Assembly: GCA_029261165.1 (NCBI GenBank)
Contig: JAJDBV010000028.1
Coordinates: forward strand, 1-64,000
Origin: Nitrospirota bacterium
GTDB lineage: Bacteria > Nitrospirota > Nitrospiria > SBBL01 > JAADHI01
Reading direction: 5' to 3'
DNA: 64,000 nucleotides
Positions 6,186-29,433 of this stretch are shown here, in pieces; position 1 is the first letter of the stretch, and every line of letters starts with the position of its first letter. The notes under the pieces were generated by a model. The model was not told the DNA's origin, ran no database searches, and saw nothing but the letters and a program-made list of their open reading frames with translations. The translations under genes were made by a program, and so were the position numbers.

Positions 6186-9100
6186 ATGAATAGGAGCACC
6201 TTGATCCACAGCGCCCTTCAAGACTTTGCCGCTGCGGTAACGTCCAAGATGACGCAATTGACCGCCGGTGAGCCGGAAGACCAGGTGCGTGGGCCTTTCG
6301 AAAACTTCATTGGGGGCGTGGCTACCGCCTTAGGCTGGAACGTCGTCTGTACCGGCGAAACGCCCTTGCCCGGACGCCTCGGCCGTCCCGATTATGCCAT
6401 CCATCTCAACCAACTGCTCGCCGGATACGTCGAACTCAAGGCCCCCGGCGTGGGCGCGACCGCAAGCCGCTTCAAGGGCCACAATCGCGACCAGTTCAAA
6501 CGATTCTCGGCCATTCCTAATATCCTCTATACCGACGGAAACGAATGGGCGCTCTACCGCGGCGGTGAACTGGTGGACAAAGTCGTTCGTCTTTCGGGCG
6601 ACGTTGCCGCCGACGGCAAGAAGGTCGCCACACCCCAGAACGCCCACGCCGTCGAACGCCTCTTGCGCGTTTTCCTCTCATGGCAGCCCTTCATCCCAAC
6701 CGACCGCAAGGGCAAGATTGACCTCAAGGGCTTCGCCGACCTCATCGCCCCGCTTTGCCGGATGCTGCGCGAAGACGTAACCGACGCGCTCAAAGACCCG
6801 GCATCACCACTCGTCCAGCTCGCAAAAGACTGGCGGCAATTGCTCTTTCCCGACGCGCCGGACCAGCAATTCGCCGACGCCTACGCCCAAACCGTTGCCT
6901 TCGCCCTTCTTCTTGGGCGCAGCGAAGGGGCCGATCCGCTCACGCTTGACAGTGCCGAAGCCGCCCTCGCCGCCCAGCACAATCTTCTTTCCCGCGCCCT
7001 GCAAGTCCTAACCGACCCTAGCGCACGCGCTGAAATCGCCGCCTCGCTCGATCTGCTCCTGCGCGTCATTGCCGTGGTGCCCCCCGCCACGCTCACTGGC
7101 CCTGAAGACCCCTGGCTTTACTTTTACGAGGACTTCCTCGCCGCCTACGATCCAAAATTGCGCAAGGACGCCGGGGCCTACTATACTCCAGTCGAGGTCG
7201 TCCGCGCCCAGGTCCGCTTGATCGATGACCTGCTCGTTAACCGCCTGAACAAGCCGCTGGGGTTCGCCGACCCCGGCGTCGTCACGCTCGACCCCGCAGC
7301 CGGTACGGGCACCTATCTGCTCGGCGTCATCGAACACGCCCTAGGCCGTATCGAAGCCGAACAGGGGGCGGGCGCCGTCGCAGGGCAGGCCACCGCCTTG
7401 GCCAACAACCTCTACGGCTTCGAACTCATGGTCGGCCCCTATGCCGTGAGTGAACTCCGCGTCAGTCGCGCCCTGCTCGACCGTGGCGCGGCGCTGCCTA
7501 AAGACGGAACGCACGTTTATCTGACTGACACACTCGAAAGCCCCCACGCCAAACCACCTCAATTGCCACTGTTTCTCAAACCCATCGCCGAGCAGCACAC
7601 CAAGGCACTCAAGGTCAAAAGCAACGTCCCCGTCATCGTCTGCCTCGGTAATCCGCCCTACGACAGGCACGGTGCGGTGGATAGCGAAAACGAGCACAAC
7701 CTGTCTCGATATGGTGGATGGGTTCGTTTTGACGACCCTTTAGCAGATGATACGAAAAAAGACAAGAGAGGAAAGCAGAGGAAACTCAAAACGGCCCAAG
7801 CCAGGTTGGCGGAAAGACAGCGCCGCTCGATTCTCCGAAGTTTCATTGATCCCGCCACCGCCGCTGGGCACGGCGTCCACGTCAAGAACCTCTACAACCT
7901 CTACGTCTATTTCTGGCGCTGGTCGCTCTGGAAGGTCTTCGAGCATAAGACGGCCCACGGCCCGGGCGTCGTCAGTTTCATAAGCGCCTCAAGTTATCTC
8001 GACGGCGACGCCTTCTGCGGGATGCGCGAGCATATGCGCCGACAGTGTGATGAGGTCTGGATTCTCGACCTCGGAGGAGAGGGGCGTGGCACGCGCCAGA
8101 CCGACAACGTCTTCGCCATCCAGACACCCGTTGCCATCGCCGTGGCGGTCCGCACGAAGAAGGCGAAGAAGGACAAGCCCGCCGAGGTCCATTACGCACG
8201 GATCGAAGGATCGCGCAACGCCAAACTCGCCAAACTCGACGCCATCGCCGATCTCTCGAAAGTGAATTGGAGGATCTGCCACGGCGACTGGCAGGCTCCG
8301 TTCCGCCCGGAGGGCAAGGGCGGTTATTTCGGCTGGCCGCTCCTGACGGACCTAATGCCTTGGCAGCCAACAGGTGTAATGGCTGGAAGAACATGGGTGA
8401 TTGCGCCAACTCATGAGTACCTTCAAGAACGTTGGCGTCGCCTTATAAGTGTGTCGGCCAACGAGAGAGCCACGTTGTTCATCGAAAATGCGACTGGGAG
8501 AAAGATCACAGATAAGGCTCTTGCCTTACGCCCACCTCGTAACAGGCTGCCGGATATCCGATCTCTTCCCAAGAATGCACCCTCTCCAAGCATTGAACCT
8601 TTCGGATTCAGGTTTCTGGATAGGCAATTGATCGTGTCCGATGGGCGATTGATAGACCGCCCATGTCCTGACCTATGGGCCTGTATTTCAGCCAGCCAGA
8701 TATTCCTATCATCGCTTCTAAATCATCCTCTTGGTTCAGGACCGGCTCTGACTGCATTTGCAGATATTCCTGATAAGCACGCCTTTCGTGGTTCATACGG
8801 AGGGAAAAACGTCTTTCCTCTTTACCGCAATGCTGGCGCTTCGGAGGCCAACATCCTGCCCGGCCTGCTCGAATTTCTGTCCGTGACCTACTACAAGCGC
8901 AAGAAGGTGACGCAGGATGATTTTGTGGCCTACGTGTACGGCGTGCTGGCGCAGCCGGACTTTACGGCGCGTTTTCTCAAGGAACTAGAGACGCGCGAGC
9001 TTCGCGTGCCCATCACCAAGGATGCCGCACTGTTCGAGCAGGTCCGCGACGCAGGTGCGCGGCTGCTCTGGTTGCACACCTACGGCGAGCGCTTCGTTCC

Positions 9101-9581
9101 CAAGGGCAAGCAACGTGGCAATGTCCCGGTCGGCGCGGCGAAATGCATGAAGACCGTCCCTGGCCACGCCGACGGCTACCCCGAAGCATTCGAGTACAAC
9201 GACGCGACCCGAACGCTCCACGTGGGCGAGGGCGAGTTCGCGCCCGTCGCGCCGGAGGTCTTCGCCTTCGAGGTCTCGGGCCTCAAGGTCGTGCATTCGT
9301 GGCTCAAGTACCGCATGAAGAAAGGCGCGGGCAAGAAGTCGTCACCCCTCGACGATATCCGCCCCGAACGCTGGACCAGCCAGTTCACGACCGAACTGCT
9401 CGATCTCCTCAGGGTACTGGAAGCGACCATCGAGGGCTATCCCGAACAGGCGAAACTACTGGAAGCAGTCGTCGAGGGCGAATGCTTCCAAGCAGATGGA
9501 CTACCAGATGTTCCACACTGGATGCGCAAGCCACCGACCGACCGCGGAGGCGACCTGTTCGATGGGCTGGATGACAGCTAA
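6186..9581 (+). CDS. Type ISP-like restriction-modification enzyme (no helicase)
   Basis: A 1131-aa single-chain restriction-modification protein. The N-terminus carries a PD-(D/E)xK nuclease signature: RPDYAIH (D69) followed by YVELKAPG (E83, K85). An N6-adenine methyltransferase core follows, with motif I LDPAAGTGTYL near residue 368 and motif IV NPPY near residue 489. The C-terminal ~400 residues fit an ISP-type target-recognition region. Classic type ISP enzymes of about 1550-1600 aa have an SF2 helicase between nuclease and methyltransferase; none is present here, so it is better described as a shortened ISP/type IIG-like enzyme. It is markedly GC-rich relative to both flanks, with an attC-like sequence at each end, so it was probably acquired on its own. 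Confidence 0.85.
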   Translation: MNRSTLIHSALQDFAAAVTSKMTQLTAGEPEDQVRGPFENFIGGVATALGWNVVCTGETPLPGRLGRPDYAIHLNQLLAGYVELKAPGVGATASRFKGHNRDQFKRFSAIPNILYTDGNEWALYRGGELVDKVVRLSGDVAADGKKVATPQNAHAVERLLRVFLSWQPFIPTDRKGKIDLKGFADLIAPLCRMLREDVTDALKDPASPLVQLAKDWRQLLFPDAPDQQFADAYAQTVAFALLLGRSEGADPLTLDSAEAALAAQHNLLSRALQVLTDPSARAEIAASLDLLLRVIAVVPPATLTGPEDPWLYFYEDFLAAYDPKLRKDAGAYYTPVEVVRAQVRLIDDLLVNRLNKPLGFADPGVVTLDPAAGTGTYLLGVIEHALGRIEAEQGAGAVAGQATALANNLYGFELMVGPYAVSELRVSRALLDRGAALPKDGTHVYLTDTLESPHAKPPQLPLFLKPIAEQHTKALKVKSNVPVIVCLGNPPYDRHGAVDSENEHNLSRYGGWVRFDDPLADDTKKDKRGKQRKLKTAQARLAERQRRSILRSFIDPATAAGHGVHVKNLYNLYVYFWRWSLWKVFEHKTAHGPGVVSFISASSYLDGDAFCGMREHMRRQCDEVWILDLGGEGRGTRQTDNVFAIQTPVAIAVAVRTKKAKKDKPAEVHYARIEGSRNAKLAKLDAIADLSKVNWRICHGDWQAPFRPEGKGGYFGWPLLTDLMPWQPTGVMAGRTWVIAPTHEYLQERWRRLISVSANERATLFIENATGRKITDKALALRPPRNRLPDIRSLPKNAPSPSIEPFGFRFLDRQLIVSDGRLIDRPCPDLWACISASQIFLSSLLNHPLGSGPALTAFADIPDKHAFRGSYGGKNVFPLYRNAGASEANILPGLLEFLSVTYYKRKKVTQDDFVAYVYGVLAQPDFTARFLKELETRELRVPITKDAALFEQVRDAGARLLWLHTYGERFVPKGKQRGNVPVGAAKCMKTVPGHADGYPEAFEYNDATRTLHVGEGEFAPVAPEVFAFEVSGLKVVHSWLKYRMKKGAGKKSSPLDDIRPERWTSQFTTELLDLLRVLEATIEGYPEQAKLLEAVVEGECFQADGLPDVPHWMRKPPTDRGGDLFDGLDDS

Positions 9582-11099: not shown

Positions 11100-14000
11100 A
11101 TGAGTAGTAAGTCGCCACAAGGGACAGTGAAGCAAACGAACAAGGTGTCCCGATCCTTGCGTCGCTCCTCTCTCATCCCAACCATTCTTCTAACATCGTT
11201 CATTACACTCCTCTTGATCATTACATCTTTTGCAACAGCACAAGCGGTGAGTCCTTCAAAGTTTGTTGTCCTGGGCGAAGAATCGGTTCGTATCAGAGAG
11301 GGGAGTTCCATCGCCAGTGGAGATATCGGTGCGAATCTCCCTAGTCCGGGACCACCTACAGGAGTAGGGCGGGTTGTCATCGACCGGGATGTGATCCTCC
11401 TTGACCCGACATCCCGTGTCATGGCCGATACTGTCGTGATAGATGGCGGGGCACAAGTCTATAACGTTCACTATAACGACCTGGTCTCCGATGGCGTGAT
11501 CTTAGGATCACAGATTACCCCGCTTTCCCTCCCACTGACAACCCTCCCGAGCATCCCTGTTTTTACAGAGGGCATCCCGGACATAGAAGTCCCCGATGAC
11601 AGCAGCCTCACGCTCGGAGCCGGAAGTTACGATTCCTTTACAGTCCGTTCGGGGGCGAGTGTCACCTTCACGGGTGGGATCTACAACTTTAAATCGTGGA
11701 ATATCCATAAAGGAGCAAGCCTCAGCTTCAATGCGCCAACCGAGATCCGAATCAAAGAGAAGCTTGAAGTAAAAGAAGGTGCCTCCATAGGGCCATCCCC
11801 AAGCAGTCCGGGCATCACGGGTGCCGATATCAAGATCATCATCACCGGGATCAACGGCCTTCTCGGGGGGGTTAATGAAATCCCTCAAGCCGCTTCCTTC
11901 GAGCGGATGGGATCTCTCCAGGCTAATGTCTATGTGCCCAACGGGACCTTGCTGATCGGGGACAGTTCGGTGATCACTGGGGCCTTCCTGGGTAAATGGG
12001 TTGATATCGGGAGATCCGTCTCACTGACCCATGAGGCGGCACGTTTTACCGGTCCAATGACCACCCCTCGTTCAGCCCACACTGCCACATTACTTCCTGA
12101 CGCTGGCATCCTGATCACCGGGGGTAAAAACGGGACCCTCCCTCTGGTCACCGCCGAACGCCTTGATCCGACGACCCTCACCTTTGGTCCGCTCACAGGC
12201 AACCTGGCAGCGGCACGCTCAGGTCACACTGCATCCGCTCTGGCCGATCAAACACACCTCCTCATTGCTGGAGAGAAAAGCGGGGGTACCCTGACCCTCT
12301 CAGAGCTCTTCCACCCGGGAACAGGCTTATTCTCTAACGTCATGGATACGCTTCGCATCCCCCGCGCCGGCCAGACTGCGACTGTTCTTTTGGATGGACG
12401 GGTCCTGATCATCGGAGGCCAGGAGACCGTCACGACCGATTCCTCAGAAGTCTTTGACGCCCAGAGCGTGATAATATTCAAACCCTCATTTGATCCGACT
12501 GAAGGGAGCTTCATCCTTTTGCCGAATCTCCTCTCCACACCACGTCGGAACCACACGGCGACACTCATGCCGGATGGAAGCGTCTTGATCATCGGAGGAG
12601 AGAACGACCTTGGATTGCTCGGCTCCGCCGAGCGCTTTGATCCAACAACAGAAACCTTTACGCCCTTAACGGCGTTAATGACCACCCCCAGAGCAGGCCA
12701 CACGGCAAACCTGCTGCCCGACGGACGTGTCCTGCTCTTAGGGGGAAGGGGGACAGCAGGCTTCCTGGACACTGCCGAGATATTTGATCCTGTTACCGGG
12801 ACCTTTTCCCCGACCACACCCGGTCTAATCATCCCGAGTGCCGAGCATACCGCGACACTCCTACCCTTTGGCGAGATCCTGATCACCGGAGGGGAGAACA
12901 GCACAGGCACGCTCTCCGCGACAAGCCTTTATGATCCCAAGTTGGTGGATACAACCCTACCCGCGGTAGCGGCACTCAGTCTCTCTGCCGGGGCAACCGA
13001 TGTTGATCTAACCGAAGTGATCGGGCTCCGATTCTCGGAGCCGGTGGATATCACAACACTGACGGGCGTCAACGTCTCTCTCTCAGGGGGTGGATCTCCA
13101 GCAAATGCCACCATAAGTGGCAGCGAAGAAGGCCTACTCGCCTTTATCGTCCCAACGACAAAACTAACTGCCGGGACTGTCTATACCTTGTCTCTTTCCC
13201 CGGCCATCACCGATACGTCAGGAAATTCCCTTGCACCGTTCTCTTCGACTTTCACGACCGTAAACGCCCCGGTCATCGCAACGGTCACGCCCGGTCATGG
13301 ACCGATCGGACAGGCCGTCACAATCACCGGCCAGAACTTTGACCCCTCGGCCCCGACATTGAATGTTGTTTCTTTTGAGGGGATCAATGCCTTGGTGACC
13401 TTGGCCACCGCAACGCTGCTGGAGGTCTCTGTCCCCTCCGGTGTCCCAACTGGGGTGGGAACGTTGACGGTAAAGACACGAGGCGGAACGGCGAGCATTC
13501 CTTTCACTATTGATAGCACGGCCCCCGTTCTGACCTCTCTTTCGCCGGTATCAGTCCCGGCGGGGAGTGCCGCCTTTACCCTGACACTTAACGGTAGTAA
13601 TTTCTTTGCAACCTCGACAGTTCAATTCGGGGCAACGACGCTTACATCAACCTTCATTAGTAACAGCCAGTTACAAGCCAGCATTCCGGCTTCGGCTATC
13701 GCATCTCCCGGAACAGTCCAGGTCACCGTGGTCAATCCGGCCCCGAACGGGGGGACCTCCAACGCGCTTGCTTTCGAAGTGATTGGCCCAGTCATTCAAA
13801 GCGTGACCCCCACAAGCGGTCCCGTCGGGACGCCGGTCACGATCACCGGACTGAACTTCGACCCAACCGCCTCTAATAATAATCTTTCCTTCAATGGTAC
13901 ATCAGCCATCATTACCTCGGCCACGACCACAGAGATCAAGACGACGGTCCCGTTAGGGGCGAGCACCGGTCCAATCTCACTCACCACACCAACCGGGACG

Positions 14001-17000
14001 GCAAGCGGCGGTACCTTTACGGTGGTCTTATCCGCAGACTTCTCAATAACGGCGTCTCCATTGTCCATTGATGTTGCCCCAGGAGGCCAAATTGCCATCC
14101 AGGTCCTCCTTTCTGGAGCGGGAGTTTCCCCTTATTCCGGCCTCGTCGGCTTGACCGTCGGGACCTTGCCCACGGGAGTCACCTCCTTTTTCTCGCCCTC
14201 AATCGGACAAACCGGCCAGGCATCGTTTCTCAACATCTTCACGCCCACAACCTTGGCGGCAGGTGCGTATCCGATAACAATACAAGCACAGGGCAATATC
14301 GACGGCCAGGCGATCACGCGTGTCGCAAATATCACCCTCAATGTCCTTCCTCCGGGAACAACCACCCTTTCGGGCCAGATACTGGCCTCCGAAACGGGCG
14401 ACCCTCTTGCAAATATTCTTGTGAAGACTGGCGGAACTACTGTCACGACCGATAGCGCGGGGAACTTTTTCTTTTCAAATATTTCGACAGGAACGCAGCT
14501 CCTGCTTATCGACGGCACCCCGGCGGGGACGGCTGTAGCTTCTTACCCGATTGATCTACCAGTCCAGGTAGATATCGTTGCAGGAACCAGTAATGTCCTT
14601 TCCTATCCAGTGTATCTGCATGAAGTGAATACAAAAAACTTCACCTTGCTGGATACAAGCCTGGGAGATGTGATTGTCTCCGATCCGGACATTCCTCTCT
14701 TTGAGCTCACCATTCCTCAGGGCACACAGATTATCGGGTGGGACGGGCTTCCGAATACAAAAATGTCGATTAAACGAGTTCCAATTGATCGGCTCCCACT
14801 CCCGCCGGTTTCTGGAGTCGCAACGACTAAAAGCGTCTACATGTTCCACTTTTTCAAAGCCGGGGGCGGGACGCCGACGGTCCCCATCCCCGTAAAATAC
14901 CCGAATGATGCTGGACTCGTACCCGGCACAAGTGTCGATCTTTATTATTATGATGAAGAACCCTTTGCCGATCCGACTTCACACCAGTGGAAAAAATTCG
15001 GGACGGGGACGGTTTCTTCCGATGCTCGCCAAATCGTGTCCGATCCCGGCGTCGGAATTCCAAAATTTTGCTGCGGCGGCGTCTTTGCAACCTGGGTAAT
15101 TGATGTCTTCAACGGTGACCCTACGCCCGACAATCCACCGAAAGGCGGCGATCCAGTTGATCTCTCTACAGGGACCTTCGGGCTCCAGAAAACGGACATG
15201 GTACTTCCGGGAATTTTCCCAACTCAATTGATCCGATATTATACCGCGCGAAACGAACCTCTGAATTCTCTCATACCGGGTCCCTTCGGTCCGGGAACAA
15301 ATCACAACTACAACCATCGACTAATTCCATTTGGAAACACAGATGAAGCCTTGCTCCTTCTCAAGGCTGATGATGGACGAGCGGTCTTTTCGATCAATCC
15401 GGATGGGACTTTCATAAACTTGACCACGCCATCGCTTAACGGGGTCGTCGTGAGTATTGGGGTGGGAGGTATTAGAACCCTCCGCTATAAAGACGGCAGG
15501 AAGTGGATTTTCTCCGACACGGGTTTCCTTATACGCGTTGAAGACCACATTGGGAATGGAGTGGATCTGATTCGCAACGATGGAATCTTAACAAAAATAG
15601 TCCAGCTGGGAGGCCGGGAAATCCTATTGGACTATGATAATTCATCACGCATTATAAGATTGACCGACCCCTTGGGGAGAGTGGTTCAATATACCTACGA
15701 TGGTACCGGGCTCTTAAATGCTGTAATCGATCCTGAGGGCGGGATAACCCGCTATACTTATGATGGAATAAAACGAATGACAACCATCACAGATGCCCGA
15801 GGGATACTCTTTTTGACCAATGAGTATGACAATAATGATCGGGTCATACGCCAGACCAATGCCGAAGGCGGTGTCTTTCAATTCTTCTATTTCGGGCCTG
15901 ATGGTCGTGCGCTACTTGATGTACCAGAAGTTATTTGGCTTCCGTTTAGAAACCCATTTTGCGGCCCCACAGAGGTGATTGATGCAGCAACGGCGATCCC
16001 ACCGGGAAGGCCCTGTGTCATTCGAAAAATTTGGCCCGGCCCAGCGGACAGTCTGGTTACACAGACCATTGTGATCGATCCGAAAGGAACCCCAAGCTCG
16101 TACCGCTTCACTACGGCGGGGTATCCAAGCGAAATCACAGACGCCTCAGGACGAACGACCCAATTTGAGCGGGCGAATGGAACGAATCAACTTATTTCTA
16201 CGACAGATCATTTGGATCGAAAGACAAGCTTTACCTATGATGCGTTTAATAACCTCCTGACCTCGACCGATCCCGAAGGCAATACAACCACCTTTACCTA
16301 TGAACCTAATTTTAATAAAGTTACGACCATTACGGATGCCCTGGCACAGGTGACGTCTTTTACCTACGATTTACAAGGAAATCTCCTGAGGACCACTGAT
16401 CCCTCCGGGGCGGTGACCACAATGACCTACAATGCCAAGGGTCAACCCATCACGGTTACCGATCCTCTAGCGAATATGACCCGCTTTAGTTACGATTCTT
16501 TTGGGGATCTCATCACGACCACAGACCCCCTCGGCAATATCACCTCCCGGGTTTACGATGCCGTCTCTCGACTTTTGGCGGTGACCGATCCGAGAGGAGA
16601 AAGCACCGGATTTATCTACGATAACCTCAATCGGGTCACCACAATAAACGATCCCGGAAACAATGCCACCCAGTTTACGTATGACCCTAATGGCAATCTC
16701 TTAACGGTTTCAGATGCGAATAACAATACAACGACTTATACCTATGACCTGCAAGACCGTCTGGACACAAGGACCGATCCATTATTAAGAAGTGAAACGT
16801 ACGCCTACGACCTCAACGGTAACCTGACAACCTTTACAGATCGGAAGGGACAGGTCACGATCTTTGCCTCCGATCCGCTTGATCGGAGAGTTAGAGCAGA
16901 CTATGCCGATGTGGCACAAACCGGGTTTGTCTACGATACAGCAGGCAGGCTGGATGAGATCATAGAAGGGACATCGACGATTAAATTTACCTACGACAAT

Positions 17001-18443
17001 CTGGATCGGCTGGCCTCGGAGCTCACGTCGCAAGGGGTGTTGTCCTATACCTATGATGCCCTGGGAAGAAGAACCTCCATGGCGGTGAATGGTGGTCTGC
17101 CTGTGAATTATCAGTACGATCTTAACTCCCGCCTGACACAGGTGGCACAGGGGTCACAGATTGTAGGTCTGGGATATGATGTTTCTGGAAGAAGAACCAG
17201 TCTGAGTTATCCAAACGGGACCAGTACGAGTTATGCCTATGACGCGGCCAGTCGAATCACTAATATTACCCATAAGGCAGGAGTAACCCCATTTGAGCGT
17301 TTGACCTATACCTATGATGCGGCGGGCAACCGGACAAGTCTGGATCGGACGAATGGCTCCGCCATCTTATTGCCAGATGCAGTTCAAGCTGCTTATGACG
17401 CTGCGAATGAACAGATCAGGCTTAATAGTACCACACCGAATTTGAATTATGATGCGAATGGAAATTTGCTTTCTCAGACCGATGCGAGCGGGACGACGAA
17501 CTATACTTGGGATGCGCGGAATCGACTGATGGGCATCACCGGGCCGACGACAACGGCCAGCTTTGTTTATGATGCCCTGGGGCGAAGGACGAGTAAAACC
17601 ATCAACGGCGTTAAGACCGATTATCAGTATGATGGGAATGACATTGTTTCTGAGATCGGCGGCGGGGCGGTTGGGGCAAGTTATATAAGATCTTTGAATA
17701 TTGATGAGCCGTTTGTGCGGCAGTCGAGTGGGAATGAATATTATCATGTGGATGCTTTGGGGAGTACGCTGGATCTGACAGATCAGAGTGGTGCTGTTGT
17801 AACGACCTATGAGTATGAAGCATTCGGGAAGACCACGATAAATGGGACCTCATTAAATCCGTTTCAGTATACGGGAAGAGAAAATGATGGTACGGGGCTG
17901 TACTATTATAGGGCTAGGTATCATAGTGGCTTGCTACAAAGATTTATTAGTCAAGATCTAATTTGGTTTGGCGATTTTAATCTTTATGCGTATGTAAAGA
18001 ATCAACCCATCAGATATTTTGATCCATTTGGGTTGGCATATTTTGCAAAGAGACCCTTAAATCCCCTTTTTCTTATGATCAACAGTCCACTGCTTGATTT
18101 GTTAAATCTAGAAGCAAGTCATGAGCAGCTAATATTTGAGGATGGAGAACTGCCTAGCAGTAAAGGACAGCCTAGCAATTTAGGATTTTTCCTGGATGGT
18201 GTGGGCGAAGATCCACATTTTGGGGAATATCAAGATAAATATAAAAAAGTAGGTCGTAAGTATGATGATGCTTTGATGCGTAAGGTTGTTAAAGAAGTAG
18301 AGCCAAAAACTTACTGTGTCGTAAGGAATAATTGTCAAGATTGGGCAGATAAAGTTCGCGAAAAATACAAAGAATTGGAGAATAAGAAAAACCGACGTCT
18401 TTGTTTAAATTTTGGCGGCCGCAAATCTAAGCTTTGTTCATGA
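11100..18443 (+). CDS. Giant secreted Rhs/YD-repeat protein with variable C-terminal tip
   Basis: 2447 aa. A basic leader plus hydrophobic helix (about residues 28-48, ending ATAQA) is a Sec signal. Then come a parallel-beta-like region (50-315), six or so kelch repeats (320-615, motif RxGHTATLLPDGxVLIxGG), a Big_5-type Ig domain (617-720), three IPT/TIG domains (722-977), a carboxypeptidase-regulatory-like domain (~1085-1165), a DUF6531-like entry (GDPVDLSTGTF, ~1347), YD repeats (1500-2180) and the Rhs core (YYYRARYHS ... YFDPFG, ~2250-2312). The last ~135 residues are unrelated to the shell and AT-richer: SHEQLIFEDG and NNCQDWADKV recall His/Cys permuted papain-like (NlpC/LRAT) folds. An AGGAG sequence precedes the ATG. 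It is likely a surface or polymorphic toxin; the tip activity is inferred. Confidence 0.85.
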   Translation: MSSKSPQGTVKQTNKVSRSLRRSSLIPTILLTSFITLLLIITSFATAQAVSPSKFVVLGEESVRIREGSSIASGDIGANLPSPGPPTGVGRVVIDRDVILLDPTSRVMADTVVIDGGAQVYNVHYNDLVSDGVILGSQITPLSLPLTTLPSIPVFTEGIPDIEVPDDSSLTLGAGSYDSFTVRSGASVTFTGGIYNFKSWNIHKGASLSFNAPTEIRIKEKLEVKEGASIGPSPSSPGITGADIKIIITGINGLLGGVNEIPQAASFERMGSLQANVYVPNGTLLIGDSSVITGAFLGKWVDIGRSVSLTHEAARFTGPMTTPRSAHTATLLPDAGILITGGKNGTLPLVTAERLDPTTLTFGPLTGNLAAARSGHTASALADQTHLLIAGEKSGGTLTLSELFHPGTGLFSNVMDTLRIPRAGQTATVLLDGRVLIIGGQETVTTDSSEVFDAQSVIIFKPSFDPTEGSFILLPNLLSTPRRNHTATLMPDGSVLIIGGENDLGLLGSAERFDPTTETFTPLTALMTTPRAGHTANLLPDGRVLLLGGRGTAGFLDTAEIFDPVTGTFSPTTPGLIIPSAEHTATLLPFGEILITGGENSTGTLSATSLYDPKLVDTTLPAVAALSLSAGATDVDLTEVIGLRFSEPVDITTLTGVNVSLSGGGSPANATISGSEEGLLAFIVPTTKLTAGTVYTLSLSPAITDTSGNSLAPFSSTFTTVNAPVIATVTPGHGPIGQAVTITGQNFDPSAPTLNVVSFEGINALVTLATATLLEVSVPSGVPTGVGTLTVKTRGGTASIPFTIDSTAPVLTSLSPVSVPAGSAAFTLTLNGSNFFATSTVQFGATTLTSTFISNSQLQASIPASAIASPGTVQVTVVNPAPNGGTSNALAFEVIGPVIQSVTPTSGPVGTPVTITGLNFDPTASNNNLSFNGTSAIITSATTTEIKTTVPLGASTGPISLTTPTGTASGGTFTVVLSADFSITASPLSIDVAPGGQIAIQVLLSGAGVSPYSGLVGLTVGTLPTGVTSFFSPSIGQTGQASFLNIFTPTTLAAGAYPITIQAQGNIDGQAITRVANITLNVLPPGTTTLSGQILASETGDPLANILVKTGGTTVTTDSAGNFFFSNISTGTQLLLIDGTPAGTAVASYPIDLPVQVDIVAGTSNVLSYPVYLHEVNTKNFTLLDTSLGDVIVSDPDIPLFELTIPQGTQIIGWDGLPNTKMSIKRVPIDRLPLPPVSGVATTKSVYMFHFFKAGGGTPTVPIPVKYPNDAGLVPGTSVDLYYYDEEPFADPTSHQWKKFGTGTVSSDARQIVSDPGVGIPKFCCGGVFATWVIDVFNGDPTPDNPPKGGDPVDLSTGTFGLQKTDMVLPGIFPTQLIRYYTARNEPLNSLIPGPFGPGTNHNYNHRLIPFGNTDEALLLLKADDGRAVFSINPDGTFINLTTPSLNGVVVSIGVGGIRTLRYKDGRKWIFSDTGFLIRVEDHIGNGVDLIRNDGILTKIVQLGGREILLDYDNSSRIIRLTDPLGRVVQYTYDGTGLLNAVIDPEGGITRYTYDGIKRMTTITDARGILFLTNEYDNNDRVIRQTNAEGGVFQFFYFGPDGRALLDVPEVIWLPFRNPFCGPTEVIDAATAIPPGRPCVIRKIWPGPADSLVTQTIVIDPKGTPSSYRFTTAGYPSEITDASGRTTQFERANGTNQLISTTDHLDRKTSFTYDAFNNLLTSTDPEGNTTTFTYEPNFNKVTTITDALAQVTSFTYDLQGNLLRTTDPSGAVTTMTYNAKGQPITVTDPLANMTRFSYDSFGDLITTTDPLGNITSRVYDAVSRLLAVTDPRGESTGFIYDNLNRVTTINDPGNNATQFTYDPNGNLLTVSDANNNTTTYTYDLQDRLDTRTDPLLRSETYAYDLNGNLTTFTDRKGQVTIFASDPLDRRVRADYADVAQTGFVYDTAGRLDEIIEGTSTIKFTYDNLDRLASELTSQGVLSYTYDALGRRTSMAVNGGLPVNYQYDLNSRLTQVAQGSQIVGLGYDVSGRRTSLSYPNGTSTSYAYDAASRITNITHKAGVTPFERLTYTYDAAGNRTSLDRTNGSAILLPDAVQAAYDAANEQIRLNSTTPNLNYDANGNLLSQTDASGTTNYTWDARNRLMGITGPTTTASFVYDALGRRTSKTINGVKTDYQYDGNDIVSEIGGGAVGASYIRSLNIDEPFVRQSSGNEYYHVDALGSTLDLTDQSGAVVTTYEYEAFGKTTINGTSLNPFQYTGRENDGTGLYYYRARYHSGLLQRFISQDLIWFGDFNLYAYVKNQPIRYFDPFGLAYFAKRPLNPLFLMINSPLLDLLNLEASHEQLIFEDGELPSSKGQPSNLGFFLDGVGEDPHFGEYQDKYKKVGRKYDDALMRKVVKEVEPKTYCVVRNNCQDWADKVREKYKELENKKNRRLCLNFGGRKSKLCS

Positions 18444-18473
18444 CTAAAAGATCTTTAACTAAGGGAAGTCAGA

Positions 18474-19361
18474 ATGAGAATGTTTTTTTTGTGCCTATTT
18501 TTTTTGGACTCAGTATTTTCGAATAAAGTGGCGCACGCAAGTGACTTGTCTGGGAAGTTAATCTACGCGAATGGGACTAATATTATAAGATCGCTTGATC
18601 TATCAACATTGAAGCATGAAATTTTACATAAAGAGCCTTTTGGGATATTCATCAACAATCTAAGCAAGATAACAGAAACAAGATTTATCTATCAAGATTG
18701 CGATGGTACTAGGAAACCAGGTTGCCTGTTGCAGGAATTTGATATTGAGAACAAGTCTGTTAAAACATGGCGTTCGGGTCATATACCTACTTACGTTAAG
18801 GAAAGCAATAGTATATTTTTTTATGAAAGTGCTCCTGATACAGGGGAGGAATGGTTATTTGTCGTAAATTTAGAAGCAATCGGGAATGCGAAAAAAGTGA
18901 TGAGAGCTCCCTCTACACATAAAACCCAGAATGGGATACCATATTCCTATAAGGGACCCGTTGTTCAAATTTCACCTGACCAAGTGATATTTGTCGGTGA
19001 AGATGATGGGATATGGATATATCAGATTTCGAATTCAAAGCTGATATCGACAGATATTAAAAACATCCGTCCTATATTTTGGCTGGACAAAACAAAGGAA
19101 CTTATTGGTTATAACTGGGAATCAAAAGGAATTGTCCGGTATGATTTAAAGTCGAAGAGAATAGAGCAATTACCCCAATTTAAAGCGAGTTCTGGGTTTG
19201 TCTATATCCCGAATTATGACACAGTAATCTCCTGGGAGGGTCGGTTGCATTTTTTTATATCTGAACGATTTGATATTTTTTCATACCATCTTGGCAGTGG
19301 AGAAAGAATGAAAATTGTTCCTAACCATCACATAAGTAGTGGAATCTGGTTCCAGAAGTGA
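18474..19361 (+). CDS. Exported beta-propeller-like protein, possible Rhs immunity
   Basis: 295 aa starting 30 bp after the Rhs stop, with AAGGGAAG as ribosome-binding site. The first ~22 residues are a signal peptide ending in AHAS. The rest repeats short strand-rich blocks (for example GKLIYANG, IFFYESA, IWIYQIS, IVRYDLKSKR), as in WD40/TolB-like propellers. Immunity genes normally sit directly after the toxin tip, and this gene shares the low-GC composition of that tip. An exported immunity protein would fit a toxin acting in the periplasm. No family match is recognised. Confidence 0.5.
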   Translation: MRMFFLCLFFLDSVFSNKVAHASDLSGKLIYANGTNIIRSLDLSTLKHEILHKEPFGIFINNLSKITETRFIYQDCDGTRKPGCLLQEFDIENKSVKTWRSGHIPTYVKESNSIFFYESAPDTGEEWLFVVNLEAIGNAKKVMRAPSTHKTQNGIPYSYKGPVVQISPDQVIFVGEDDGIWIYQISNSKLISTDIKNIRPIFWLDKTKELIGYNWESKGIVRYDLKSKRIEQLPQFKASSGFVYIPNYDTVISWEGRLHFFISERFDIFSYHLGSGERMKIVPNHHISSGIWFQK

Positions 19362-19555: not shown

Positions 19556-19863
19556 CTCCGGACCACCACGGATCCCCTCGGGAATGTCACCTCCCGGGTT
19601 TACGATACCGTCTCTCGTCTTTTGGCGGTAACCGATCCGAGAGGAGAAACCACCGGTTTTATCTACGATAACCTCAACCGGGTCACCACAATAAACGATC
19701 CCGGAAACAATGCCACCCAGTTTACGTATGACCCTAATGGCAATCTTTTAACGGTTTCAGATGCGAATAACAATACAACGACTTATACCTATGACCTGCA
19801 AGACCGTCTGGATACAAGAACCGATCCATTGTTAAGGAGTGAATCGTATCTCTATGATCTCAC
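19556..19863 (+). pseudogene. Truncated Rhs-repeat fragment
   Basis: About 305 bp nearly identical (roughly 95% by eye) to 16513-16818 of the big Rhs gene, covering four YD repeats (for example GFIYDNLNRVTTINDPGNN). It is preceded by unrelated sequence and stops at the left end of the IS3-family element. Displaced partial Rhs copies are normal in Rhs loci and can serve as donors for tip exchange. An open frame runs from 19496 to 19897 by chance into the IS. Confidence 0.75.
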
Positions 19864-19939
19864 AGAAGTGGACCCCGGAAATGGGACAGTGGCATAAGTG
19901 ATCTTCCTGAGGTATCTTAAACGACCACAGGAGGAAAAG

Positions 19940-20167
19940 ATGAAAAGGAAAAGGCGGAATCATTTACCCGGATTTAAAGCCAAAGTCGCACTGGCCGCAA
20001 TTAAAGGCGACAGGACGTTATCGGAGCTTTCAGAGCAATTTGATGTCCACCAGAATCAAATTCAAGACTGGAAAAAACAATTACTCGATCAGGCCGCATC
20101 GGTGTTTGGCAGCAGTCAGGATCGTCAGAAGGCCGATGAATCTCAAAGGCCGATGAATCTCATTTGA
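19940..20167 (+). pseudogene. IS3 orfA, frameshifted by a 17-bp tandem duplication
   Basis: ATG at 19940 follows CAGGAGGAAAAG. The product is the usual IS3 OrfA helix-turn-helix (FKAKVALAAIKGDRTLSELSEQF ... QIQDWKKQLL). At 20129-20145 and 20146-20162 the 17-mer AAGGCCGATGAATCTCA is present twice in tandem, which shifts the frame and ends it at 20167. With a single copy the frame would run on to LENDFLAKALGR and stop at 20238, just before orfB, as in normal elements. The element is therefore probably inactive. Confidence 0.85.
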
Positions 20168-20240
20168 AGAACCTGCATGCCAAGATTGGAGAACTGGCAT
20201 TAGAAAATGATTTTTTAGCCAAAGCGCTCGGGCGTTAAGC

Positions 20241-21092
20241 ATGTCTGAGCGCAGAGGGAGAATAGACCGTGAGCATGCCCTTCCCGTTATCCGACAATGT
20301 ACGGCACTTGGTCTCTGTCGGTCCTCGGCTTATAGATCGCCCGGCGAGGTAAATGAGGCTGACATTGAGTTGATGCGAAAGATAGATGTATTGCATCTGC
20401 GACATCCGTTTAAAGGGTCGAGGCGGTTGCGTGATGATCTATGGGATGACTATGGCCTGCAAGTTAATCGGAAAAGGGTTCAGCGATTGATGAGAATCAT
20501 GGGGATACGTGCACTCTACCCAAGGGCCAAAACCACCGGCCCCAACCCTCAGCACAAAGTCTATCCCTATTTGTTGCGGGATTTGGAGATTAAGCAAGTG
20601 AACCAGGTGTGGTGTACTGACATCACGTACATCCCCATGCGCAAGGGCTTTTTGTATCTGGTGGTCATCATGGATTGGCATTCCAGGAAAGTCCTCTCTT
20701 GGCGATTATCCAATAGCCTGGATACTGCGCCTTGTATTGAGGCCCTGGAAGAAGCCATTGCAAAACATGGAACACCAAAGATATTCAACAGTGACCAGGG
20801 CTGCCAATTTACAAGTGATGGCTTTACAGGCGTCCTTAGAGACAACGACATAAAGATCAGCATGGATGGCAAGGGACGTTGGATAGATAATGTGTTTATC
20901 GAGCGGCTCTGGCGGAGCCTGAAATACGAGGAGGTTTACCTCAAAGCCTATGACGCGGTAGCACAGGCAAAAAAGAACATTGGGGTTTGGTTGACGTTTT
21001 ATAATCAAGACAGGCGGCATGCCAGTCTGAATAGAATGACACCCGATCAGGTTTACTATGCGTTGCCATCAGGACTCCCAAAGGCAGCATGA
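20241..21092 (+). CDS. IS3-family transposase OrfB
   Basis: 283 aa. An N-terminal HTH_21-type region (DIELMRKIDVLHLRHPFKGSRRL) precedes an rve integrase core with the DDE triad in WCTDITYIP, FNSDQGCQF and FIERLWRSLKYE, and the closing YNQDRRHASLNRMTP. It follows the expected end of an intact orfA by two bases. The gene itself is whole, but the OrfA partner is frameshifted. Confidence 0.9.
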   Translation: MSERRGRIDREHALPVIRQCTALGLCRSSAYRSPGEVNEADIELMRKIDVLHLRHPFKGSRRLRDDLWDDYGLQVNRKRVQRLMRIMGIRALYPRAKTTGPNPQHKVYPYLLRDLEIKQVNQVWCTDITYIPMRKGFLYLVVIMDWHSRKVLSWRLSNSLDTAPCIEALEEAIAKHGTPKIFNSDQGCQFTSDGFTGVLRDNDIKISMDGKGRWIDNVFIERLWRSLKYEEVYLKAYDAVAQAKKNIGVWLTFYNQDRRHASLNRMTPDQVYYALPSGLPKAA

Positions 21093-21158
21093 AACGGACT
21101 CAGGATTTCACTTATAAAAGATAATTCACTGTGTCAGGTATGGGGTCCACTTCTGTGG

Positions 21159-21428
21159 TCTCTGGGCACAACTCTTCTGGGGATGGGTAAAGCATCGTTA
21201 GCACTAAAGTATTTAGAAGATGCCTTAGAAAATACAAAAAAAAGAGCCGATGTTAATCAAGACGTACTGGATCTTAGATATTCGGACTTAGCAGAGGCGC
21301 TAAATGTATTGGAAAGGTACAAAGATTCATTAAAAGTTATCCAAGAAGGTCTTAAGAAGTTAAAAGGTTCTAAAAGGAAACACTTGGAAGATTTACGAAA
21401 AAAAACTCTTTTATTGGTTAATGGATAA
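21159..21428 (+). pseudogene. C-terminal fragment of a TPR protein
   Basis: The frame is open straight out of the IS right end and encodes helical repeats (LGTTLLGMGKASLALKYLEDAL, then DLAEALNVLERYKDSLKVIQEGL) typical of tetratricopeptides. A possible restart is the ATG at 21183. The front of the gene is missing, presumably lost when the IS3 element inserted or by a linked deletion. Confidence 0.6.
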
Positions 21429-21526
21429 ATAGTGGTCAAATCGTTTAGGGACGGATCTTCTATTCTGAAAATGAATGCATGAACGAAGGCAGAGGAAGAA
21501 ATAAACCAAGCCAATATAAGGATTGT

Positions 21527-22540
21527 ATGATTCAAAATGATTACATAAGAAAAATCACCCGGCTGGCGATATATAGTTTGGTTGTCTTGTTCCTAGCTTG
21601 CTCAATCACGGCTCACGCTGCTCCCGCCGAATTTTTCTACGATGCTCAGGGGCGGCTGGTTGGCGTAAAAGACGAAACGGGGAGCATGGCTATTCACCGC
21701 TATGATGCTGTTGGGAACCTGCTTTCCATTGATACCTTTTCGCCGACGGCGGGAAACGTCGGGATCTTTCTGCTGCTGCCCGAAAAAGGCGTAGTGGGAG
21801 AGAACATCGATATCCAGGGGTTTGGCTTCAGCAATGTGACCACCTTGAATACAGTCACCTTCAATGGCACCCCCGCCACCGTCGTCGCTGCAAGCTTTGA
21901 TACCCTCACCGTCACCGTGCCCATTGGCGCGACCACCGGTCCTGTTGTCGTGACCAATGCCACCGGGAGCGCCACCAGTCCTCAGCCTTTCACCATTTCG
22001 AACGTACCCACGATTTCCGGCATCGTCCCCGAAGAAGTGCCCCAGGGAACAAGCAATTTTGTTGTGATTTCCGGAAGCAAGCTGACAAATGTGACCGGGG
22101 TTACCTTCCTGTCCACCGGCCTTTCCGCCATCCTCCGATCAGGGGCCACATCCGAATCGATACCCCTTACCCTGCAAGTGGCTATCACGACCCCGCCCGG
22201 TGATTATGGCTTTTCCTTAACAACGTCCAACGGTACAATACAGAGTGGACTGATTAAGATTGGCGTTCGTAATCCCGTCCCAAGGATTACGATGACCAAT
22301 CCAATCAGCGTGTTTCTCCCGAGACCTCCCGCGCCCACTTCCGGTTCCGGCCCGGCACTCAGCACGGCCTCAGGACCAAGCATATTTTTTCCTATTCCGC
22401 CCAGTCCGGTTTCCCCAACGGGTCCGGCAGCCAGTTCAGTCCCGGGACCCAGTGTTTTTTTCCCACCACTATCTGATCCGGTCTCGCCGTCCGGAAGCAG
22501 TATGAGTATTGCGCCGCCTGAAAGTGTATTAATGCCCTAA
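21527..22540 (+). CDS. Secreted YD-repeat/IPT protein
   Basis: ATG at 21527 is preferred because AAGGA (21518-21522) lies just upstream; an ATG at 21479 in frame has none. The protein starts with a signal peptide (about residues 12-32, ending AHAA). Two YD motifs follow (FFYDAQGRLVGVKD, HRYDAVGNLLSID), then an IPT/TIG domain (~55-140) and a second Ig-like unit (~140-225). The tail is Pro/Ser-rich with three near-repeats of GPSIFFP/PSPVSPTG. Probably a surface protein related to the big Rhs shell but lacking core and tip. Confidence 0.7.
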   Translation: MIQNDYIRKITRLAIYSLVVLFLACSITAHAAPAEFFYDAQGRLVGVKDETGSMAIHRYDAVGNLLSIDTFSPTAGNVGIFLLLPEKGVVGENIDIQGFGFSNVTTLNTVTFNGTPATVVAASFDTLTVTVPIGATTGPVVVTNATGSATSPQPFTISNVPTISGIVPEEVPQGTSNFVVISGSKLTNVTGVTFLSTGLSAILRSGATSESIPLTLQVAITTPPGDYGFSLTTSNGTIQSGLIKIGVRNPVPRITMTNPISVFLPRPPAPTSGSGPALSTASGPSIFFPIPPSPVSPTGPAASSVPGPSVFFPPLSDPVSPSGSSMSIAPPESVLMP

Positions 22541-22577
22541 TGGTTTATGTCTTACCAAGTATAGAAAGGAGTAGATC

Positions 22578-23948
22578 ATGAGAATAGAACGAGGAAAACG
22601 ATGGTTTCAAGGAATCTGTTTTATTGTAGTGTCCCTCTGGGCGGCTATAGCGACCGCCCAGACCTACAACAGCGGGAGTACCGGCACCCTTCCCTTAAAC
22701 CCGACTGCCAGTATTACACTGAACCTGCCAGCAGACGGTATCCTTAACTATACCAATGTGACCATACCGGCTGGCATTACTGTGACCTTCAATCAAAACA
22801 CAAACAATACCCCCGTAACCATCCTGGCGACGGGAGATGTGAACATTGCTGGAGTAATCAGTGTCAATGGGGTGAATGGGCGACCAATTTCAGAAACACC
22901 CAATCTTGGAAGCGCTGGAGGTCCGGGAGGGTTTGCCGGAGGATCAGGAGGAACCCGTTCGGCAAATCCTGTCCCTGGAGCGAATGGCCTCGGTCCGGGA
23001 GGCGGTGCACGGGGTATTAATGGTATTTATGGTGCCCCGGTGGGTTTTGATTCTCTCATCCCGCTTTTTGGCGGTTCCGGAGGCGGGGGCGGCGGTACCT
23101 TTCCCGGAAACCCACCCTTCGCAGGAGCCTCCGGAGGCGGCGGAGGGGGTGCCATCGCCATCGTGTCCTCAACCCGAATCGTATTAACCGGATCCGTAAC
23201 CGCCAACGGTGGAGACGGCGGGCCCAGAGGTGCATTTATTACCTGTGATTTGAGTGGCGGCGCAGGGTCGGGGGGTGCGATCCGCTTGGTTGCCCCGGAA
23301 ATAACCGGGACCGGTTCCTTGGCTGCTGTAAATGGGAATTTTGGATGTTCTGCTACTTCCACTTCTTCCGGAATCGTCCGACTGGAAGCCTTCAATCTCA
23401 CCTACACCGGTGCCAGCACCCCAATGTATAATACATCGGCTTCTCCCGGACCCGTGACAGCAGCAAGCACACCCCCTTTAATCAACCTGCCGACCCTGTC
23501 AATCACATCGGTGGGCGGGATCGCCTCCTCGGCAAACCCTACCGGATCGTACACGAGTGCAGACATCTCCCTTCCGGCAACAGCGGTCAACCCCGTTCCG
23601 GTGAACCTTACCGCCACAAACACCCCTGTCGGGACAGTCTTTACGGTGAGACTCATCCCTCAGTTTGCTCCTAAAGTAGACGTCACTAGCGCCCCCTCAA
23701 CCGGCACCTTTTCGAGTTCGACCACCACATCCAACGTGAGCTTTCCCGTCGGTCAGGTCAGTCTTATAAACGCCTTTGCGAGTTTTACCCTGACAGCACA
23801 GGTTGCAAGCCTCTACCCCCTGATTGACGGCGAACCGGTCGAGCGCATCATGCTGGCCGCCAACTACGGTGGTCCTTCGACGGTCACACTCATTACAAAA
23901 TCGGGGAAAAAGGTCACAGCAGACCAATTGTTGAGAGGGGGCCGATAG
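22578..23948 (+). CDS. Secreted Gly-rich adhesin-like protein
   Basis: 456 aa with a signal peptide (RWFQGICFIVVSLWAAIATAQ). AAAGGAG precedes the ATG. The N-terminal ~80 residues are Thr/Asn-rich beta structure (LPADGILNYTNVTIPAGITVTF). A strongly Gly-rich stretch (~110-200, GGSGGGGGG) and a beta-rich C-terminal half follow, without a recognisable anchor. The pattern resembles beta-helix surface proteins of environmental bacteria. Function unknown. A terminator follows at 23992. Confidence 0.65.
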   Translation: MRIERGKRWFQGICFIVVSLWAAIATAQTYNSGSTGTLPLNPTASITLNLPADGILNYTNVTIPAGITVTFNQNTNNTPVTILATGDVNIAGVISVNGVNGRPISETPNLGSAGGPGGFAGGSGGTRSANPVPGANGLGPGGGARGINGIYGAPVGFDSLIPLFGGSGGGGGGTFPGNPPFAGASGGGGGGAIAIVSSTRIVLTGSVTANGGDGGPRGAFITCDLSGGAGSGGAIRLVAPEITGTGSLAAVNGNFGCSATSTSSGIVRLEAFNLTYTGASTPMYNTSASPGPVTAASTPPLINLPTLSITSVGGIASSANPTGSYTSADISLPATAVNPVPVNLTATNTPVGTVFTVRLIPQFAPKVDVTSAPSTGTFSSSTTTSNVSFPVGQVSLINAFASFTLTAQVASLYPLIDGEPVERIMLAANYGGPSTVTLITKSGKKVTADQLLRGGR

Positions 23949-25158: not shown

Positions 25159-25818
25159 GTGATAAATACCTCAGCTATGAAATTTAAGAAGGCCAACCCG
25201 AAAACAAGAAAGCTCCTCAAGATTTCAAATTCCGACCGGAAATTCCGCCTACTTCAAGCGGATCGAGCCTTCCTTCGTGACCTCTCCCGGCTTCACATTC
25301 TTTCGGAAAATCTTGCGGGGGCAAATCATTATCAGCATTTGAAAGGCGGGGCGACACGTTCGTTACGCCGTCTGGAAAGTGCAGGGATCATTCTCAGGGA
25401 AAAACGATATATACCGGGAAGGGGTATAGATTACGTCTGTCAATTTTCAAGTCAGGAGATGGCACGTGCCTGGGGAGGGCGTCTTCCGGCGACAGGCGCA
25501 AGGCGGAATGAATTCCATGAACTGATCACGTCGGAGTTGTACTACAAAACAGGAAGGCCTAAGGATTTCCGATTGGCGGATCAATTAACGCTTTCAGAAG
25601 TTAAAGCCTTTCATGGGCATCGGCCAGACGCGGTCTTTACCGATTCTGAAACAGGTCAACCCGTCGCAGTTGAGGCGGACAGCGGCCATTACAATAAAAA
25701 GCAGATCATGACGAAACTTTCACGGTGGAGAGGCTACCGTCAGGTCTGGGGCCAGCCCGAAAGGGTTTCCGCCCATGTACCGACGAGCGCAAATGTCTAC
25801 GTGCATGTTTTGAGCTAA
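25159..25818 (+). CDS. Replication-relaxation (Replic_Relax)-like wHTH protein
   Basis: 219 aa. An N-terminal winged helix (about residues 25-95, LQADRAFLRDLSRLHILSENL...RLESAGIILREKRYI) precedes a C-terminal domain with HRPDAVF, VAVEADSGHY and WGQPERVSAHVP, the pattern of PF13814-type proteins encoded with mobilisation genes. The PD...E-x-D layout is reminiscent of a PD-(D/E)xK core, but catalysis is not shown. Start is GTG 25159 or ATG 25177; neither has a clear ribosome-binding site. First gene of the transfer operon. Confidence 0.6.
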   Translation: MINTSAMKFKKANPKTRKLLKISNSDRKFRLLQADRAFLRDLSRLHILSENLAGANHYQHLKGGATRSLRRLESAGIILREKRYIPGRGIDYVCQFSSQEMARAWGGRLPATGARRNEFHELITSELYYKTGRPKDFRLADQLTLSEVKAFHGHRPDAVFTDSETGQPVAVEADSGHYNKKQIMTKLSRWRGYRQVWGQPERVSAHVPTSANVYVHVLS

Positions 25819-25844
25819 TCAGGAAGGGATGAGAAGGAGGGATT

Positions 25845-27350: not shown

Positions 27351-27390
27351 GAATTACGCCGGGATTCCGGCGTTTAATAAAGGAAAAACA

Positions 27391-29330: not shown

Positions 29331-29339
29331 AATAATTGA

Positions 29340-29433
29340 AGAACCCCGCCGCAGAGCGGCGAGGATTCTCCGACCCGAAAGGAGGAGTACTTTATTTATA
29401 TTCGCTCTCTAACCCCGCCCTAGAAGGGCGAGG
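29340..29433. repeat. Two short GC-rich hairpins (REP/IS605-end-like)
   Basis: CGCCGC-AGA-GCGGCG (about 29345-29360) and CCGCCCT-AGA-AGGGCGAGG (about 29414-29434), about 70 bp apart in the gap before the pilin gene. Similar CGCCTAGAAAAGGCG and CCCCGTCCGGAAGGGCGGGG hairpins occur near 281 and 52038. This type is common at IS200/IS605 ends and in REP elements. No transposase is present here. Confidence 0.5.

What the first reader, a model, noticed from the sequence alone, without database searches (positions are those of the whole stretch)
11100..19361. Sec-secreted 2447-aa Rhs with an H...NCxDW tip and an exported possible immunity protein
The Rhs shell carries its own Sec signal, kelch and IPT domains, unlike typical T6SS Rhs proteins. 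The last ~135 residues change composition and contain SHEQLIFEDG and NNCQDWADKV, a His/Cys arrangement recalling permuted papain-like enzymes. The next gene has a signal peptide and a propeller-like pattern, so protection would occur outside the cytoplasm.
Basis: partly seen in the sequence, partly recalled or inferred. Interest (0 to 1): 0.65.

Follow-up and report, generated by a model that had tools for sequence, protein, structure and literature searches.

The report
Secreted Rhs toxin with papain-like tip
A bacterium of the phylum Nitrospirota (inferred) carries a giant secreted toxin whose tip looks like a rearranged papain-type enzyme that probably damages the envelope of rival cells, and the next gene probably makes an exported protein that protects the producer.

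Summary
Window 11100-18443 encodes a 2447-aa Rhs protein with its own Sec signal, kelch/Big_5/TIG domains, a full Rhs shell ending at DPFGL (residue 2312) and a 135-aa low-GC tip. The next gene (18474-19361) encodes an exported protein with a six-fold, propeller-like repeat. No searched library names the tip. About 17 related tips were found in Nitrospirota, Kiritimatiellae and one Lysobacterales genome, almost all at the end of an Rhs chain. They conserve His2341 (12/12), Cys2412 (15/15), Tyr2405 (14/15) and a polar residue at 2360 (14/14). This is the signature and order of permuted NlpC/P60 enzymes (LRAT, YiiX, PPPDE). The tip profile aligns with LRAT over the NC box, above every shuffle. 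Foldseek found no significant fold match, so the fold is not proven. In 16 of 17 loci the next gene is a membrane, lipoprotein or Sec-exported protein, of several unrelated families. The best reading is an envelope-acting antibacterial tip, probably a lipid (acyl) hydrolase working like Salmonella Tox-Act1, with an envelope immunity protein. The 295-aa partner is unique to this locus. The same shell on contig C41 carries a different tip and partner. New variant of a known kind.

The parts
11100..18443 (+). Sec-exported Rhs polymorphic toxin, 2447 aa
   Evidence: ORF; domains; PF05593 in genome
11100..11246 (+). signal sequence, residues 1-49 (basic n-region, hydrophobic core, AQA cleavage-like site)
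   Evidence: read from the translation; no signal-peptide predictor was available
12381..12938 (+). kelch-type beta-propeller region, residues 428-613 (best stretch; kelch starts about residue 318)
   Evidence: Pfam PF24681/PF13418; shell homologues match from residue 318
12948..13259 (+). bacterial Ig-like domain Big_5, residues 617-720
   Evidence: Pfam
13521..13988 (+). IPT/TIG domains, about residues 808-963
   Evidence: Pfam TIG, three stretches; NF058597 and NF047769
15147..15383 (+). DUF6531, start of the Rhs shell, residues 1350-1428
   Evidence: Pfam
15633..17555 (+). Rhs/YD repeats forming the shell
   Evidence: PF05593 matches in G000:C21
17814..18035 (+). Rhs-associated core, residues 2239-2312, ending at DPFGL, the usual border before a variable tip
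   Evidence: TIGR03696; coordinates
18036..18440 (+). variable tip, residues 2313-2447: predicted permuted NlpC/P60 (papain-like) domain; His2341 codon 18120-18122, Asn2360, Tyr2405, Cys2412 codon 18333-18335
   Evidence: alignment A3, conservation, AF2 model pLDDT 82, hhalign with LRAT
18474..19361 (+). candidate immunity protein, 295 aa, Sec-exported, six-bladed propeller-like repeat
   Evidence: repeat statistics; low-confidence all-beta model
19562..19848 (+). displaced copy of Rhs repeat DNA, 94% identical over 287 bp to 16515-16801; probable relic of an earlier 3' end of the gene
   Evidence: blastn
20241..21092 (+). IS3-type transposase ORF between the cassette and the downstream genes
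   Evidence: matching terminal repeats seen
21479..22540 (+). 353-aa exported protein with one Rhs repeat and a TIG domain; a similar gene also lies after the second shell on contig C41

Best explanation
A Sec-exported Rhs polymorphic toxin. The 2312-residue exported part (kelch, Ig-like and TIG domains plus the Rhs cocoon) carries an exchangeable 135-aa tip, presumably freed at the DPFGL border. The tip is a permuted NlpC/P60 enzyme using Cys2412, His2341, a polar residue (Asn2360) and Tyr2405. It most likely cuts an acyl bond in envelope lipids or lipoproteins of a competing cell; a peptide bond in the envelope is second choice. The 295-aa exported propeller-like protein next door protects the producer outside the cytoplasm. 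Shown: gene anatomy, tip exchange on the shell, conserved residues, and the envelope location class of the partners. Inferred: fold, catalysis, substrate, immunity and delivery.
For: (1) Tip family of about 17 members found by similarity and profile searches, nearly all directly after an Rhs core or in a cassette. (2) Conserved His 12/12, N/S/D 14/14, Tyr 14/15, NC 15/15. The Tyr-Cys distance is 7, as in PPPDE1 (Tyr101/Cys108, PMC3142127). (3) hhalign with bacterial LRAT scores 27.2 against a maximum of 20.3 in 40 column shuffles, and aligns MRxA...Y.L..NNC with the LRAT NC box. (4) Weak PPPDE match over the NC region for two members (best E 0.042). A neighbouring Rhs tip in L010 matches PPPDE at 6e-5, and the gene after it encodes an exported protein with a PD40 propeller hit. 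(5) AF2 model (pLDDT 82, pTM 0.75) puts His at a strand start and Cys at the N-cap of the long helix. (6) Next genes: of 16 candidates, 13 have 2-4 hydrophobic segments, one has one, one is a lipoprotein, one is Sec-exported. Among small window genes 2 of 12 have two or more segments. (7) Tox-Act1 of Salmonella has the same residue order, is toxic only in the periplasm, has a two-TM immunity protein and is a phospholipase (PMC12994826). (8) Tip exchange: the C41 shell, 77% identical at the N terminus, has another tip and partner; an M23 tip lies beside a shell relative.
Against: Foldseek gave no significant match in PDB or the viral library; LRAT and YiiX were not recovered with confidence. 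The hhalign match to LRAT is only 28 columns with 26% probability, and YiiX and the PPPDE-like core do not match. Pfam hits are far below cut-off. The partner here has no credible homologue in 296 genomes of the phylum (the single weak hit is a chance match to a nitrilase-like protein) and is not membrane-bound as most others are. Exported partners could also be needed simply because the toxin itself passes through the periplasm. No route across the outer membrane was identified.
Confidence: 0.6

Rival explanations
1. The tip is a permuted papain-like cysteine peptidase or amidase acting on peptidoglycan or a periplasmic protein rather than on lipid.
For: PPPDE is annotated as a peptidase and is the family most often hinted at by Pfam. 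An M23 cell-wall peptidase tip lies beside a shell relative. The partner here is soluble and exported, like inhibitors of cell-wall amidases (own knowledge).
Against: Most partners of this tip family are small polytopic membrane proteins, a poor location for a peptidoglycan-amidase inhibitor. Permuted members have hydrophobic, lipid-binding pockets (PMC3142127) and the studied toxin members Tox-Act1 and TseH act on phospholipid (PMC12994826).
Confidence: 0.22
2. The tip acts in the cytoplasm of the target (for example as a deubiquitinase-like or signalling peptidase), and the exported or membrane partners only protect the producer during export.
For: The toxin crosses the producer's periplasm, so an exported partner would be placed there whatever the final target. 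PPPDE enzymes in eukaryotes work in the cytosol (own knowledge).
Against: A cytoplasmic toxin arriving from a sibling would need a cytoplasmic immunity protein, and none is seen next to the tips.
Confidence: 0.1
3. The tip is not an enzyme: it is a structural or inactive domain that merely keeps an NC motif, and the next gene is unrelated.
For: No fold match; no homologue of the 295-aa gene near other tips.
Against: Catalytic-type residues are among the most conserved positions across distant lineages, and the order tip then envelope protein is kept in 16 of 17 loci.
Confidence: 0.08

Closest known systems
Tox-Act1/Imm-Act1 of Salmonella (permuted NlpC/P60 phospholipase, T6SS effector; PMC12994826)
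   Same: His first, Cys near the C terminus; antibacterial setting; immunity in the envelope with two transmembrane helices, as for many partners of this tip family
   Different: Delivered by T6SS, not on a Sec-exported Rhs shell; His-Cys spacing 108 (H43, C151) against 71 here; no sequence link was tested; the partner in the window is an exported propeller-like protein
LRAT / H-rev107-like acyltransferases and YiiX/YaeF (permuted NlpC/P60; PMC3142127)
   Same: Order His, polar residue, Tyr, Cys; NC-box alignment with LRAT; H-box shape HxxLFFxDG recalls HxGIYIGDG
   Different: Not matched by the Pfam LRAT or Peptidase_C92 models; tip-specific conserved HE, FEDG, DxxMR and NCQDWA; no significant fold match
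PPPDE / Peptidase_C97
   Same: Weak hit over the NC region; Tyr-Cys spacing of 7 residues
   Different: E 0.042-0.078, far below the family cut-off
Bacterial teneurin-like proteins (TLPs; PMC13018210)
   Same: Rhs/YD shells with variable C-terminal toxins and a downstream immunity gene; one tip toxic only when exported
   Different: Here kelch, Big_5 and TIG domains precede the shell; the teneurin architecture was not tested for
WapA and other Sec/T2SS-route Rhs polymorphic toxins (PMC3482391)
   Same: Signal peptide, Rhs repeats, exchangeable tip, adjacent immunity gene
   Different: The tip hits none of the papain-like or Tox-HDC families described there, as far as Pfam models cover them; envelope partners instead of the usual cytoplasmic ones (own knowledge)

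Membership tests
Rhs polymorphic toxin | YD/RHS repeats ending in the Rhs-associated core and DPxGL border | tested here: met
   14 RHS stretches, TIGR03696 to residue 2312, then DPFGL|A
Rhs polymorphic toxin | Exchangeable C-terminal tip on a conserved shell | tested here: met
   C41 shell with a glycine-rich tip and 92-aa partner; same tip on otherwise different Rhs chains
Rhs polymorphic toxin | Adjacent immunity gene specific to the tip | tested here: inconclusive
   Adjacent envelope gene in 16 of 17 loci but of differing families; protection not testable here
Rhs polymorphic toxin | Tip is toxic to bacteria | not testable with these tools
   needs expression in E. coli
T6SS Rhs effector | PAAR or other T6SS-loading domain and no signal peptide | tested here: not met
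   no PAAR in Pfam scan; Sec-type N terminus
Permuted NlpC/P60 superfamily | His, polar residue, Tyr and Cys in that order, all conserved | tested here: met
   12/12, 14/14, 14/15, 15/15
Permuted NlpC/P60 superfamily | Statistically supported sequence or profile similarity | tested here: inconclusive
   LRAT hhalign score 27 against shuffle maximum 20, but 26% probability; Pfam below cut-off
Permuted NlpC/P60 superfamily | Papain-like fold | tested here: inconclusive
   good model but Foldseek E > 0.1 in both libraries
LRAT (PF04970) / YiiX (PF05708) / PPPDE (PF05903) | Match over the curated cut-off | tested here: not met
Tox-Act1 | Homology to Tox-Act1 | not tested
   no Tox-Act1 model appeared in the library hits; its sequence was not fetched

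The most novel reading that the evidence does not exclude
The tip founds a new clade of permuted NlpC/P60 lipid-cutting toxins spread among Rhs proteins of Nitrospirota and Kiritimatiellae. Its immunity has been solved in several unrelated ways, all in the envelope, including an exported six-bladed beta-propeller in the window (and another next to a PPPDE-like tip in L010), a fold that, to my knowledge, has not been described as an inhibitor of such toxins.
Probability: 0.35. Interest if true: 0.62.

Novelty: new variant of a known kind. Interest (0 to 1): 0.46.

Why it matters
Rhs tips are best known as cytoplasmic poisons delivered by T6SS. Here an Rhs lineage with its own export signal carries or neighbours envelope-type tips (permuted papain, M23 peptidase, glycine-rich), so the shell may be adapted to deliver to the periplasm or membrane. 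It adds an unnamed tip family with about 17 examples and a clear catalytic signature, and gives a direct test of whether permuted NlpC/P60 toxins outside Salmonella and Vibrio also attack lipids. The change of partner family with constant location is a clean case for studying how immunity is replaced.

Tried and rejected
T6SS Rhs: rejected, no PAAR and a signal sequence. Known defence protein: no PADLOC hit. Phage or plasmid carriage: no tip match in phages, plasmids or viral contigs. Homologue of the 295-aa gene: one hit in 296 genomes (L019/L020) lies in a nitrilase-like ORF and was rejected; no plasmid match. PDB sequence searches with the tip and its profile: chance hits only. Foldseek: no significant match. 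The single-sequence model of the 295-aa protein was too poor to search (pLDDT 44), so it was used only as a hint of all-beta content. Direct similarity between the 295-aa protein and the L010 exported propeller protein: none by BLAST. PPPDE-like tip of L010 in 148 genomes of the phylum: none. Tox-HDC was considered from PMC3482391 (H, D/N, C order) but the tip does not hit it in Pfam, and that family typically lacks immunity genes. A downstream exporter was looked for: the genes at 25-37 kb are a ParB/TrbI-containing, conjugation-like cluster, and no T2SS was found.

Full report
Observation. The 2447-aa ORF at 11100-18443 and the 295-aa ORF at 18474-19361 are real, co-directional and 30 bases apart, with a ribosome-binding-like AAGGGAAG before the second. 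The large protein starts with a basic segment, a long hydrophobic stretch and an AQA site. It then has kelch repeats, Big_5, TIG domains, DUF6531, RHS repeats and the Rhs-associated core, which ends at residue 2312 in DPFGL. GC falls from 52.4% in the shell to 37.5% in the tip and 36.8% in the 295-aa gene, typical of a swapped-in cassette.

The shell is a polymorphic-toxin shell. The same genome has a second copy on contig C41, 77% identical over the first 620 residues. It carries a glycine-rich tip (weak glycine-zipper match) and a 92-aa partner with two hydrophobic segments. In a relative (L044, contig C52 of G327), two further Rhs ORFs lie beside the shell homologue, and one ends in an M23 peptidase domain. 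Downstream of the window pair lies a 287-bp piece of Rhs DNA, 94% identical to 16515-16801, followed by an IS3-type element. The simplest reading is a relic of an older 3' end pushed downstream when the present tip came in, then cut by the insertion element (inference).

Tip relatives. A search of 84,980 species genomes and profile searches of whole genomes gave about 17 tips. They lie in Nitrospirota (L010/L017, L018), a Lysobacterales genome (L009), an unassigned genome (L011) and 8 of 288 genomes of the class of the Kiritimatiellae genome L012. Only the Lysobacterales one was found among 399 genomes of its phylum. No match was found in phages, plasmids or viral contigs. The phylum of the window is inferred as Nitrospirota, because G370, of the same phylum, carries a locus nearly identical to the Nitrospirae record L010. 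Tips sit after Rhs cores, or in arrays of Rhs-end plus tip plus small gene (L018, L053/L058, L010), as expected of exchangeable cassettes.

What the tip is. Across 15 aligned tips the conserved positions are His29 (tip numbering; 12 of 12), Asn/Ser/Asp48 (14 of 14), Tyr93 (14 of 15) and Asn99-Cys100 (15 of 15), plus Asp78, Met81, Arg82, Arg108 and Tyr111. Permuted NlpC/P60 enzymes are defined by His, a polar residue, Tyr and Cys in this order. In human PPPDE1 the Tyr and Cys are seven residues apart (PMC3142127), as here. In most tips the polar position lies about 13 residues after the His; the window tip has a six-residue insertion there. A profile comparison with bacterial LRAT proteins aligned the NC region (MRxAxxxV...YxL...NNC) with score 27.2, against 20.3 at most in 40 column-shuffled controls, but covered only 28 columns at 26% probability. 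A combined H-box plus NC-box pattern matched only LRAT proteins and tips in about 980,000 six-frame residues, and nothing in five shuffles. It was written after seeing both families, and the window tip itself misses it by one residue. The AF2 model is fairly confident (pLDDT 82, pTM 0.75), with His at the start of a strand and Cys at the first residue of the long helix. Foldseek found nothing significant in PDB or the viral library. Membership of the superfamily is therefore likely but not proven. I put it at about 0.8.

Where it acts. Of 17 tip loci, 16 have a next gene whose product is predicted to be in the envelope: 13 with two to four hydrophobic segments, one with one, one lipoprotein (L009; its gene holds N bases) and the Sec-exported protein of the window. 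One (L025) is followed by a radical-SAM-like gene. Only four pairs of partners are recognisably related, so the location is kept while the family changes. As a rough baseline, 2 of 12 window genes of up to 230 aa have two or more hydrophobic segments; the loci are not fully independent. In L010 a neighbouring tip with a PPPDE hit at 6e-5 (below Pfam's cut-off) is followed by an exported 308-aa protein with a PD40 propeller hit over cut-off, a second case of the arrangement seen in the window. Tox-Act1 of Salmonella gives the experimental precedent: a permuted NlpC/P60 phospholipase, toxic only in the periplasm, with a two-TM immunity protein (PMC12994826). A teneurin-like Rhs tip that is toxic only when exported is a second precedent for envelope action (PMC13018210).

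The 295-aa protein. It has six copies of a short motif ([IL]xx[FLVY][DNQH][IL]) spaced 40-52 residues, as in a six-bladed propeller. None of 20,000 shuffles reached six (motif chosen after the fact). Its single-sequence model is all-beta but of low confidence. No credible homologue was found in 296 genomes of the phylum or in plasmids. Its role as immunity rests on position, export and the pattern in the relatives.

Mechanism, by step. Shown by sequence: export signal, shell, tip, exchange, conserved residues, envelope class of partners. Inferred: Sec export, release at DPFGL, permuted-papain catalysis by Cys2412/His2341, attack on envelope lipid (about 0.55) or on an envelope peptide bond (about 0.22), and neutralisation by the 295-aa protein (about 0.75). 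Unknown: how the toxin leaves the cell and enters a target.

Noticed in passing
window 19562-21157: Displaced Rhs DNA (94% identical to 16515-16801) directly followed by an IS3-type element with matching ends (CACAGAAGTGGACCCC); no clear target duplication, which suggests a rearrangement.
   Followed up: partly
window 21130-21429: Remnant reading frame after the IS with a TPR-like sequence (by eye), possibly the partner gene of an earlier tip.
   Followed up: no
window 21479-23948 and L013 4577-7112: Two exported-type genes follow the shell in both copies (window and contig C41); the first of them (353 and 349 aa) look homologous, each with one Rhs repeat. Possibly accessory parts of the system.
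   Followed up: partly
window 6186-9581: 1131-aa protein with N6 DNA methylase and Type ISP specificity domains: a type ISP restriction-modification enzyme beside the Rhs locus.
   Followed up: no
window 25159-40857: Long co-directional cluster with ParB-like and TrbI-like proteins and several large proteins without a Pfam hit: looks like an integrated conjugative element.
   Followed up: partly
L010 9234-10966: Rhs-end cassette with a PPPDE-like tip (E 6e-5) followed by an exported protein with a PD40 propeller hit; second candidate propeller immunity to a permuted-papain tip.
   Followed up: partly
L018 243-1875 (minus strand): Array of Rhs-end cassettes, two of them with different NC-type tips, each of these followed by a small gene for a hydrophobic protein.
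   Followed up: partly
L044 38-1651 (minus strand): Rhs end fragment with an M23 peptidase tip, near a relative of the window shell.
   Followed up: partly
L013 7931-8290 (minus strand): Glycine-rich tip of the second shell copy, reminiscent of a membrane-inserting glycine zipper, with a 92-aa two-segment partner.
   Followed up: partly
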